A stretch of 64,000 bases of DNA, taken from Echinarachnius parma (Eukaryota; Echinodermata; Echinoidea; Clypeasteroida; Echinarachniidae). The notes below the pieces were generated by a model. It worked only from the letters and a program-made list of their open reading frames with translations, made no database searches and was not told where the DNA came from. Below are positions 3,537-57,349 of the stretch, piece after piece (the first letter of the stretch is position 1; every line of letters begins with the position of its first letter). A program made the translations under genes and the position numbers. The stretch is taken from positions 1 to 64,000 of the forward strand of contig JBAMJV010008341.1 in NCBI GenBank assembly GCA_037951105.1. Direction: 5' to 3'.

Positions 3537-3617
3537 CTAAAAGGCGTCCAGATTAGCGTATTCTACGGACCCCTGCAGGTGGTCGGAGATGACGTCATAG
3601 CATAGCTTGTACATCTC
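3537..3617 (-). CDS. Exon 32: last D2 helix and C-terminus
   Basis: 81 nt including the TAG stop, residues 1545-1570, phase 0. Begins [14 protein letters not shown], the final D2 helix (usually DQYKFCYEVxxEYL), then [11 protein letters not shown]. The acceptor is TACTCACAG. The tail holds a YAN motif (Tyr1564). Confidence 0.92.
   Translation of the reverse strand, partial: EMYKLCYDVISDHLQGSVEYANLDAF

Positions 3618-57349: not shown

What the first reader, a model, noticed from the sequence alone, without database searches (positions are those of the whole stretch)
3537..57349. Tie-type ectodomain joined to an R2B-type tandem tyrosine phosphatase
Exons read directly show the order Ig-Ig-EGF(x5)-Ig-FN3(x3)-membrane-PTP-PTP in one continuous frame of 1570 residues. 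The ectodomain order, the RLIVR-EGF junction and the FCLSDPFGC motif are those of Tie (angiopoietin receptor) kinases, while the cytoplasmic half has [13 protein letters not shown] and an R2B-style D2 with HCMNGLSRSG and NMVDSL. If real, the same sensor class is wired to dephosphorylation instead of phosphorylation, and it may antagonise or balance a true Tie kinase. I do not recall a well-characterised receptor of this design, but it may already sit unnamed in genome annotations.
Basis: partly seen in the sequence, partly recalled or inferred. Interest (0 to 1): 0.92.

Follow-up and report, generated by a model that had tools for sequence, protein, structure and literature searches.

The report
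Tie-headed receptor tyrosine phosphatase gene
A sea-urchin-type genome carries a cell-surface receptor whose outside matches the Tie (angiopoietin) receptors but whose inside looks built to remove phosphate from proteins instead of adding it, and the same design turns up unnamed in many echinoderms and in amphioxus.

Summary
The finding holds. A 32-exon gene on the minus strand (57349 to 3537) encodes 1570 residues: signal, Ig-Ig-EGF(x5)-Ig-FN3(x3), membrane segment, tandem PTP. The Ig2-EGF part matches TEK best among PDB sequences (E 1e-42); the tail groups with vertebrate R2B phosphatases (100/100). D1 keeps its catalytic motifs; D2 has lost WPD. It is one gene: L. pictus protein P0002 aligns along every exon from Ig2 to D2, an upstream tandem paralog repeats Ig3 to D2 with omega 0.26 in D1 and 0.18 in D2, and only 438 bases separate FN3 and membrane exons. 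Of 305 proteins fetched, 71 join a Tie-type EGF block to a PTP, from five echinoderm classes, a hemichordate and amphioxus. Across species kinase, phosphatase and enzyme-less tails alternate on related Tie heads. In this genome, matches to the Tie-type EGF block lie on 72 contigs; 14 are also among 69 listed PTP contigs, none among 40 kinase-match contigs (capped lists). Ligand and function are untested.

The parts
57259..57349 (-). exon 1: start codon and signal peptide
   Evidence: 96.7% identical residues in paralog C6704
54274..54567 (-). exon 2: Ig1
   Evidence: aligned to P0016 40/96; Cys55-Cys108
41311..41589 (-). exon 3: Ig2 ending in RLIVR, no Cys as in the TEK alignment
40819..40953 (-). 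exon 4: EGF1
   Evidence: Pfam EGF_2 1.5e-5
39140..39298 (-). exon 5: EGF2 with FCLSDPFGC
35821..35955 (-). exon 6: EGF3
34977..35132 (-). exon 7: EGF4
33481..33612 (-). exon 8: EGF5
32403..32690 (-). exon 9: Ig3
31234..31536 (-). exon 10: FN3-1
28562..28632 (-). exon 11: FN3-2 first part
25660..25885 (-). exon 12: FN3-2 second part
24350..24588 (-). exon 13: FN3-3 first part
23057..23120 (-). exon 14: FN3-3 second part; ends in a phase-1 intron just before the membrane exon, near the place where tails differ in swapped pairs of other species
22519..22618 (-). exon 15: transmembrane segment
   Evidence: 100% identical TM exon in C6704
20639..20685 (-). exon 16: juxtamembrane
   Evidence: boundaries least certain
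19680..19963 (-). exon 17: juxtamembrane, proline-rich, IYENT motif, start of wedge
18163..18250 (-). exon 18: PTP D1
17538..17614 (-). exon 19: PTP D1, GC donor
16699..16735 (-). exon 20: PTP D1 (YIASQ)
   Evidence: 100% nucleotide identity in both paralogs
16068..16165 (-). exon 21: PTP D1
15249..15374 (-). exon 22: PTP D1
14273..14466 (-). exon 23: PTP D1 with WPD; ends inside HC|S
13505..13640 (-). exon 24: PTP D1 with SAGVGRTG
12894..13043 (-). exon 25: D1-D2 linker
11206..11305 (-). exon 26: PTP D2
10723..10799 (-). exon 27: PTP D2
9177..9311 (-). exon 28: PTP D2
7212..7337 (-). exon 29: PTP D2
6602..6750 (-). exon 30: PTP D2 with WQA in place of WPD
4641..4776 (-). exon 31: PTP D2 with NGLSRSG and NMVDSL
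3537..3617 (-). exon 32: C-terminus EYANLDAF and stop

Best explanation
The window holds a single protein-coding gene for a type I membrane receptor that places a Tie-type sensor (Ig1-Ig2-EGF, then Ig3 and three FN3 modules) outside the cell and an R2B-type tandem tyrosine phosphatase inside. Shown: the architecture, the relation of each half to its family, its recurrence in predicted proteins of related species, a tandem paralog carrying the same Ig3-to-D2 part, and purifying selection on the enzyme. Inferred: a ligand, or a partner sharing the Tie-type head, clusters or relocates the receptor. D1 then dephosphorylates tyrosine-phosphorylated neighbours. D2, which has lost WPD, regulates or docks. 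When phosphorylated, the C-terminal YANL and the juxtamembrane IYENT (pYxN type) recruit Grb2- or Src-type SH2 proteins, as recalled for PTPRA Tyr789. The receptor belongs to a large, rapidly diversifying family of Tie-type heads whose tails can be phosphatase, kinase or no enzyme. Those heads probably read related ligands in immune or coelomic cells, so the phosphatase form is the inhibitory (or Src-activating) output.
For: Model. TEK as best PDB match, aligned over residues 104-364. AF2 model of a relative, best match Tie2. R2B grouping. Catalytic motifs. One gene: exon-by-exon alignment to single predicted proteins P0002 (Ig2 to D2) and P0096 (EGF3 to D2), 438-base FN3-TM intron, no kinase exons found in the window. 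Paralogs open, with omega below 1 for the enzyme (D1 0.26 and 0.07, D2 0.18) and fastest change in Ig1 (0.98) and Ig2 (0.70). YxN in the last 25 residues in 56 of 71 Tie-PTPs against 16 of 82 other RPTPs fetched. Tail swaps. Spread in this genome. Coelomocyte context, A. rubens surface proteomics naming both a Tie-2-like kinase and an RPTP-F-like protein: PMC13409769 passages.
Against: No transcript, ligand, substrate or activity data. The Ig3-FN3 block fits R2B as well as Tie. No kinase match lies on any of the 72 contigs with Tie-type EGF matches in this genome, so a kinase partner is not shown here. Among relatives 15 of 71 lack D1 WPD and/or a recognisable P-loop by my pattern (two of these, P0056 and P0057, have only part of the domain), so enzymatic output is not universal. 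Some close tails come without a full Tie head in the predicted models: P0098 of Diadema setosum, P0113 and P0114 of hemichordates, and P0096 of S. purpuratus, which starts at EGF3. The YxN comparison counts related and partly redundant proteins. PTPRA-like signalling is an analogy.
Confidence: 0.72

Rival explanations
1. Two neighbouring genes, a Tie-type ectodomain gene and an R2B phosphatase gene, have been read as one.
For: Echinoderm heads without an enzyme exist among predicted proteins (P0016, P0019, P0026, P0040), tails without a full Tie head too (P0098, P0113, P0114), and a C4366 gene of this genome shows a head through FN3-2 with no recognisable tail before the next gene. Automated models in tandem arrays can merge genes.
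Against: The third FN3 domain is itself split and followed by the membrane exon after 438 bases. Phases fit throughout. The single predicted L. pictus protein P0002 aligns along every exon from Ig2 to D2, though weakly at the membrane and juxtamembrane exons (12 of 33, 6 of 16 identical). The upstream paralog repeats the order from Ig3 to D2. C6704 carries one signal exon, heads, FN3, TM and PTP on one strand.
Confidence: 0.05
2. The EGF/Ig head is only generically EGF-like (MEGF or SCARF type), not Tie.
For: Pfam sees few of the modules; EGF modules are prone to convergence; the ectodomain tree held only rows with a Tie-like block and no formal outgroup.
Against: 117-144 bits to four Tie kinases against at most 57.4 for nine other EGF proteins. 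The TEK alignment runs through Ig2, the RLIVR-C-KWGP junction and the FCLxDPxGC module. Ig2 lacks Cys in both.
Confidence: 0.04
3. The receptor is a pseudo-enzyme or decoy that sequesters Tie ligand; dephosphorylation is incidental.
For: Diadema paralogs P0001, P0003, P0005 and P0007 have lost D1 WPD, and holothurian P0022, P0028 and P0030 the P-loop Arg. Enzyme-less heads exist. Heads evolve faster than tails.
Against: In this gene and both paralogs D1 keeps WPD and CX5R, and D1 evolves under strong constraint.
Confidence: 0.15
4. It is an adhesion-type RPTP (R2B role at cell contacts) whose Tie-like head has replaced the MAM-Ig head, with no link to Tie signalling.
For: R2B cytoplasmic half; Ig3-FN3 equally close to PTPRK; no contig with both a Tie-type EGF match and a kinase match seen in this genome.
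Against: Related heads carry kinases in asteroids, ophiuroids and amphioxus, with 1331 of 1575 identical ectodomain residues in one asteroid pair, which argues for a shared ligand logic.
Confidence: 0.25

Closest known systems
Tie1/Tie2 (TEK) receptor tyrosine kinases, including the sea urchin kinase SpTie1/2
   Same: Ig-Ig-EGF-Ig-FN3(x3) order, Cys-less Ig2, RLIVR-EGF junction, FCLxDPxGC module
   Different: five EGF modules, tyrosine phosphatase instead of kinase, large tandem family
R2B receptor phosphatases (PTPRM, PTPRK, PTPRT, PTPRU)
   Same: tandem D1/D2, active-type D1, degenerate D2 with HC(x)NG and NMV, wedge region
   Different: no MAM domain; Tie-type head; a C-terminal YxN tail that the two vertebrate R2B tails inspected lack
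VE-PTP (PTPRB) acting on Tie2 in vertebrates
   Same: a receptor phosphatase linked to Tie biology
   Different: VE-PTP is an FN3-only R3 phosphatase with one PTP domain; here the head itself is Tie-type
PTPRA/PTPRE (R4)
   Same: C-terminal YANF/YANL motif
   Different: PTP tree separates them (100/100); amphioxus P0042 is the exception, an R4-type PTP under a Tie-like head
Paired activating/inhibitory receptors (KIR, SIRP, LILR; recalled)
   Same: near-identical heads with opposite tails in tandem families
   Different: here the tails are the enzymes themselves, and kinase/phosphatase pairs were seen in other species, not in this genome

Membership tests
Tie receptor kinases | Ig-Ig-EGF-Ig-FN3 ectodomain related in sequence to TEK/TIE1 | tested here: met
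   Ig3-FN3 part alone not decisive
Tie receptor kinases | tyrosine kinase domain | tested here: not met
   no kinase exons in the window by tblastn; tandem PTP instead. It is not filed as a Tie kinase
Tie receptor kinases | angiopoietin binding | not testable with these tools
   needs binding assay
R2B receptor phosphatases | tandem PTP domains grouping with PTPRT/PTPRK | tested here: met
   61 rows including 4 vertebrate R2B apart from PTPRA, LAR and zeta, 100/100 (order inside the 61 mostly open); named vertebrate hits listed are PTPRT or PTPRK except one zeta-like fish protein; proteins under about 863 residues, such as PTPRA (recalled length), could not be candidates there
R2B receptor phosphatases | MAM-Ig-FN3(x4) ectodomain | tested here: not met
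   no MAM hit in Pfam; Tie-type head and three FN3
Catalytically competent PTP | WPD loop and HCX5R loop in D1 | tested here: met
Catalytically competent PTP | measured phosphatase activity | not testable with these tools
   needs enzyme assay
Paired kinase/phosphatase receptors with a shared head | closely similar heads on opposite enzymes in one species | tested here: met
   in predicted proteins of other species: A. amurensis P0206/P0023, Patiria, Amphiura
Paired kinase/phosphatase receptors with a shared head | such a pair in this genome | tested here: inconclusive
   0 of 72 contigs with Tie-type EGF matches carry a match to a Tie kinase domain at E 1e-6; lists are capped, contigs are short, exon-wise search is insensitive

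The most novel reading that the evidence does not exclude
In non-vertebrate deuterostomes the Tie-type head is an exchangeable sensor cassette. Recombination near the phase-1 intron before the membrane exon has repeatedly re-tailed it with a kinase, an R2B-type phosphatase, an R4-type phosphatase (amphioxus) or no enzyme. The result is large, fast-evolving arrays of opposing receptors comparable to paired immune receptors but with the enzymes built in. In the lineage of this window the phosphatase output has taken over.
Probability: 0.55. Interest if true: 0.92.

Novelty: new variant of a known kind. Interest (0 to 1): 0.82.

Why it matters
Kinase and phosphatase receptors are normally thought of as separate families with separate sensors. 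Here one sensor family reports through either enzyme. That makes a direct test possible: do two receptors with nearly the same head, one adding and one removing phosphate, set a balance for the same ligand? It also bears on where the Tie pathway came from, since in sea urchin a Tie kinase is reported from coelomocytes and the axial organ (PMC12113024 passages) rather than vertebrate-type vessels. Finally, it warns that a number of annotated 'RPTP mu/kappa/F-like' genes in echinoderms are not orthologues of those vertebrate genes outside the membrane.

Tried and rejected
An exon at 57084-56980 (Ig1 candidate) was rejected: its phases do not fit the neighbours. A first guess for D1 exon 20 at about 17290 was the edge of a repeat; the exon at 16735-16699 fits phase and family. 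A dN/dS value for D2 against C6704 (197 codons, omega 0.50) was dropped because exon D2g cross-matched D1g there. Pfam scans of single Ig exons gave nothing useful. Ten literature searches for a Tie-headed phosphatase (open-licence PMC papers only, listings capped at 10 to 15 papers) showed no title or abstract start that describes one. I read passages, not whole texts, of PMC10815196, PMC13409769, PMC5336234, PMC8662651, PMC12113024 and PMC11925454; PMC6017057 was seen in listings only. The two most relevant older papers (Byrum 2006 on sea urchin phosphatases; Stevens 2010 on SpTie1/2) are not held, so I cannot say that the architecture is absent from them. Which accession the A. rubens proteomics paper calls RTPPF was not checked (supplements not available). 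In the C4366 array the tail of one gene was not found, so its type is open.

Full report
WHAT IS THERE. The gene lies on the minus strand. Starting from the motifs I built a chain of 32 exons from 57349 (ATG) to 3537 (stop), 4713 coding bases including the stop, 1570 residues, with no internal stop and consistent phases at all 31 introns (recounted in 121). Thirty introns are GT-AG and one is GC-AG. All introns from the signal exon to the end of FN3-1 are phase 1, so the head modules sit in phase 1-1 exons that can be exchanged without breaking the frame.

THE HEAD. Against PDB sequences the ectodomain's best match is TEK (4k0v, E 1.1e-42 for the whole sequence), aligned over residues 104-364 (end of Ig1, Ig2, EGF1-3), with the same RLIVR-C-KWGP junction and FCLxDPxGC module and no Cys in Ig2. 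A 175-residue Ig2-EGF3 block scores 117 to 144 bits against four Tie kinases (sturgeon and Labeo TEK, turtle TIE1, Ptychodera Tie) and at most 57.4 against nine other EGF proteins; these are from 15 proteins picked for display. The Ig3-FN3 block is not diagnostic: PTPRK 61.2, sturgeon TEK 60.5 bits. Pfam recognises three FN3 domains but no Ig or EGF in the full protein; of six head exons scanned singly only EGF1 passes a cut-off. An AlphaFold2 model of the relative P0026 (955 residues, mean pLDDT 75.7, pTM 0.43, 22 sequences) gives the Tie2 ectodomain as the first Foldseek match (E 1.1e-28), followed by RPTP sigma (7.5e-25), contactin 2 and RPTP mu. The overall TM-scores are low (0.26 for the first), as expected for a flexible chain of domains.

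THE TAIL. Pfam finds two Y_phosphatase stretches (1.5e-136). In a 65-row tree of D1-D2, 61 rows including the window and four vertebrate MAM-bearing R2B proteins stand apart from human PTPRA, human LAR and a fish zeta with 100/100 support; the order inside the 61 is largely open, and R1, R3 and R7 types were not included. In a separate search with residues 1000-1570 the named vertebrate hits among the 120 listed are PTPRT or PTPRK, save one zeta-like fish protein, P0116, which the tree keeps apart; the length rule of that search kept out proteins under about 863 residues. By pairwise score alone tandem PDB chains of PTPRE and PTPRA rank first; no tandem R2B chain is among the 60 shown there. 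D1 keeps WPD and [11 protein letters not shown]2 has WQA and HCMNGLSRSG. The C-terminus EYANLDAF and the juxtamembrane IYENT are YxN motifs. YxN occurs in the last 25 residues of 56 of 71 Tie-headed PTPs against 16 of 82 other RPTPs fetched, numbers that include related and near-duplicate proteins.

ONE GENE. Exons from Ig2 to D2 each align to the single predicted Lytechinus pictus protein P0002, weakest at the membrane and first juxtamembrane exons (12 of 33 and 6 of 16 identical), and from EGF3 to D2 to the S. purpuratus protein P0096. The FN3-to-membrane intron is 438 bases. Tblastn with Tie kinases finds no kinase exon in the window. The source genome is held (G000, 1.2 Gb in 14790 contigs; the window is the first 64 kb of the 101.6 kb contig C8327). 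Just upstream on the same strand lies a second copy from D2 (66794) to Ig3 (99424), where the contig ends. A third copy on C6704 has one signal exon, two successive Ig1-Ig2-EGF1-3 cassettes and one EGF4-to-PTP remainder, cut by the contig end in D2. By naive projection 19 of 24 and 22 of 27 exons keep both splice sites, and the GC donor is kept in both; the rest were not examined by hand. Nei-Gojobori omega against the upstream copy: Ig3 0.41, FN3 0.61, TM-JM 0.30, D1 0.26, D2 0.18. Against C6704: Ig1 0.98, Ig2 0.70, EGF 0.40, Ig3 0.48, FN3 0.54, TM-JM 0.49, D1 0.07 with dS only 0.026, which suggests recent gene conversion. The C6704 D2 value is void (cross-match). The enzyme is constrained and the outer tip is nearly free.

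NOT A ONE-OFF. Of 305 proteins fetched in three searches, 71 combine the Tie-type EGF block with a PTP by my score limits, 47 of them with Ig2, EGF1-2 and D1 in order, and none of the 71 with the kinase motif searched for. By the names they come from echinoids (Lytechinus, Diadema, Strongylocentrotus), crinoids (Antedon, Anneissia), holothurians (Apostichopus, Holothuria), an ophiuroid (Amphiura), asteroids (Asterias, Patiria, Acanthaster), a hemichordate (Glandiceps) and amphioxus. As far as the truncated names show, they go under other RPTP names or as uncharacterized, none under Tie. The lists are capped and shaped by shared words, so these are lower bounds and not a census, and some rows are isoforms. 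Tails close to the Tie-PTPs also occur without a full head in predicted models (P0098 Diadema setosum, P0113 Ptychodera, P0114 Glandiceps, P0096 from EGF3 on). The window groups with echinoids on both halves (ectodomain 12 rows 100/98; PTP 10 rows 100/97), hence an echinoid source is likely.

TAILS CHANGE HANDS. On an 84-row tree of the Ig2-EGF3 block (46 PTP rows plus the window, 26 kinase, 9 without enzyme, one hyalin-like, one GPCR), the PTP label needs 19 changes, at least 14 forced by starred branches. Holding all 47 phosphatase rows together against the 26 kinase rows is rejected (p-AU 0.0004); gene conversion among heads could contribute. In Asterias amurensis P0206 (kinase) and P0023 (PTP) share 1331 of 1575 aligned residues up to 90 residues before the membrane segment and 75 of 325 in the cytoplasmic part beyond it; identity stops about 20 residues before the membrane segment. 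L. pictus P0016 (no enzyme) and P0002 (PTP) share 574 of 629 and part near the same place, which corresponds to the window's phase-1 intron after residue 857. Patiria pairs blur around the membrane segment, and the Amphiura pair P0207/P0025 aligns poorly beyond its EGF region. Amphioxus P0042 has an R4-type PTP beside human PTPRA (100/100) under a Tie head close to kinases of another amphioxus record, a separate joining or a gene-model merge. All of this rests on predicted proteins.

IN THIS GENOME. The EGF block gives 150 scored exon matches out of 1018 candidates, on 72 contigs, some in arrays such as C4366. Few were checked further. C5656 matches the window as well as the window itself at EGF1 and EGF2, so both haplotypes seem to be in the assembly and gene numbers are lower than contig numbers suggest. 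Of 69 contigs listed for PTP, 14 are among those 72, against 0.34 expected if contigs were drawn evenly (contig lengths and haplotypes ignored, both lists capped). An asteroid Tie kinase domain gives 43 matches at E 1e-6 on 40 contigs, at 26-54% identity except one 40-residue exon on C7150 and C10272 at 68%; none of the 40 contigs is among the 72 or the 69. One C4366 gene shows its head to FN3-2 and no recognisable tail. So here the Tie head is a phosphatase head or one without a recognised enzyme as far as seen, and a kinase partner was not located.

HOW IT MAY WORK. The best-supported reading is a ligand-controlled receptor phosphatase that lowers tyrosine phosphorylation near sites where Tie-type ligands or partners gather, or that activates Src-type kinases by the PTPRA route (recalled). 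Expression in coelomocytes is plausible: sea urchin SpTie1/2 is reported from coelomocytes and axial organ (PMC12113024, passages). Asterias rubens coelomocyte membranes contain a 'Tie-2-like' kinase and an 'RPTP-F-like' phosphatase by mass spectrometry (PMC13409769, passages). Our A. rubens P0027 and P0034 bear that second name and have Tie heads, but whether they are the detected protein was not checked. Steps shown: structure of the gene, family of each half, constraint, recurrence. Steps inferred: ligand, substrates, direction of regulation.

PRIOR KNOWLEDGE. Ten searches of the open PMC library showed no title or abstract start that describes a Tie-headed phosphatase, and passages read in six papers did not either. 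Two likely sources are not held. I therefore call it a new variant of a known kind (receptor phosphatase), undescribed as far as I could look.

Noticed in passing
window 4923-5021 (-); also C8327:68044-68149 (L009): A decayed second copy of D2 exon 31 (MNGISRSG... with a stop in frame) lies just upstream of the good exon; a matching remnant sits in the same place in the tandem paralog.
   Followed up: partly
C6704:8351-44438 (L019, L020, L018, L017, L016): A paralog has one signal exon followed by two Ig1-Ig2-EGF1-3 head cassettes before one EGF4-to-PTP remainder: a two-headed receptor or alternative heads.
   Followed up: partly
G000 C4366 and 71 other contigs with matches to the EGF block: Tie-type EGF exons are greatly expanded in this genome, in C4366 with about 34-71 kb between successive EGF1 matches; at least one array gene shows no recognisable enzyme tail.
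   Followed up: partly
P0067 (Holothuria), P0048-P0050 (Lytechinus variegatus): Tie-type heads also occur on a predicted adhesion GPCR and on hyalin-like proteins.
   Followed up: no
P0042 Branchiostoma lanceolatum: Amphioxus 'PTPRA' joins a Tie-like head to an R4-type PTP, apparently a separate joining from the R2B-type ones, or a gene-model merge.
   Followed up: partly
P0001, P0003, P0005, P0007 (Diadema); P0022, P0028, P0030 (holothurians): Paralogs with D1 motifs lost look like pseudophosphatase versions of the same receptor.
   Followed up: no
window 24674-25258 (+): Reverse transcriptase fragment (RVT_1, E 7.6e-7, just under the Pfam cut-off) inside the intron between FN3-2 and FN3-3.
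   Followed up: no
C6704 D1 exons 56516-61859: D1 is almost identical to the window copy (dS 0.026) while neighbouring parts differ at dS 0.09-0.34, as if D1 were being homogenised by gene conversion.
   Followed up: no
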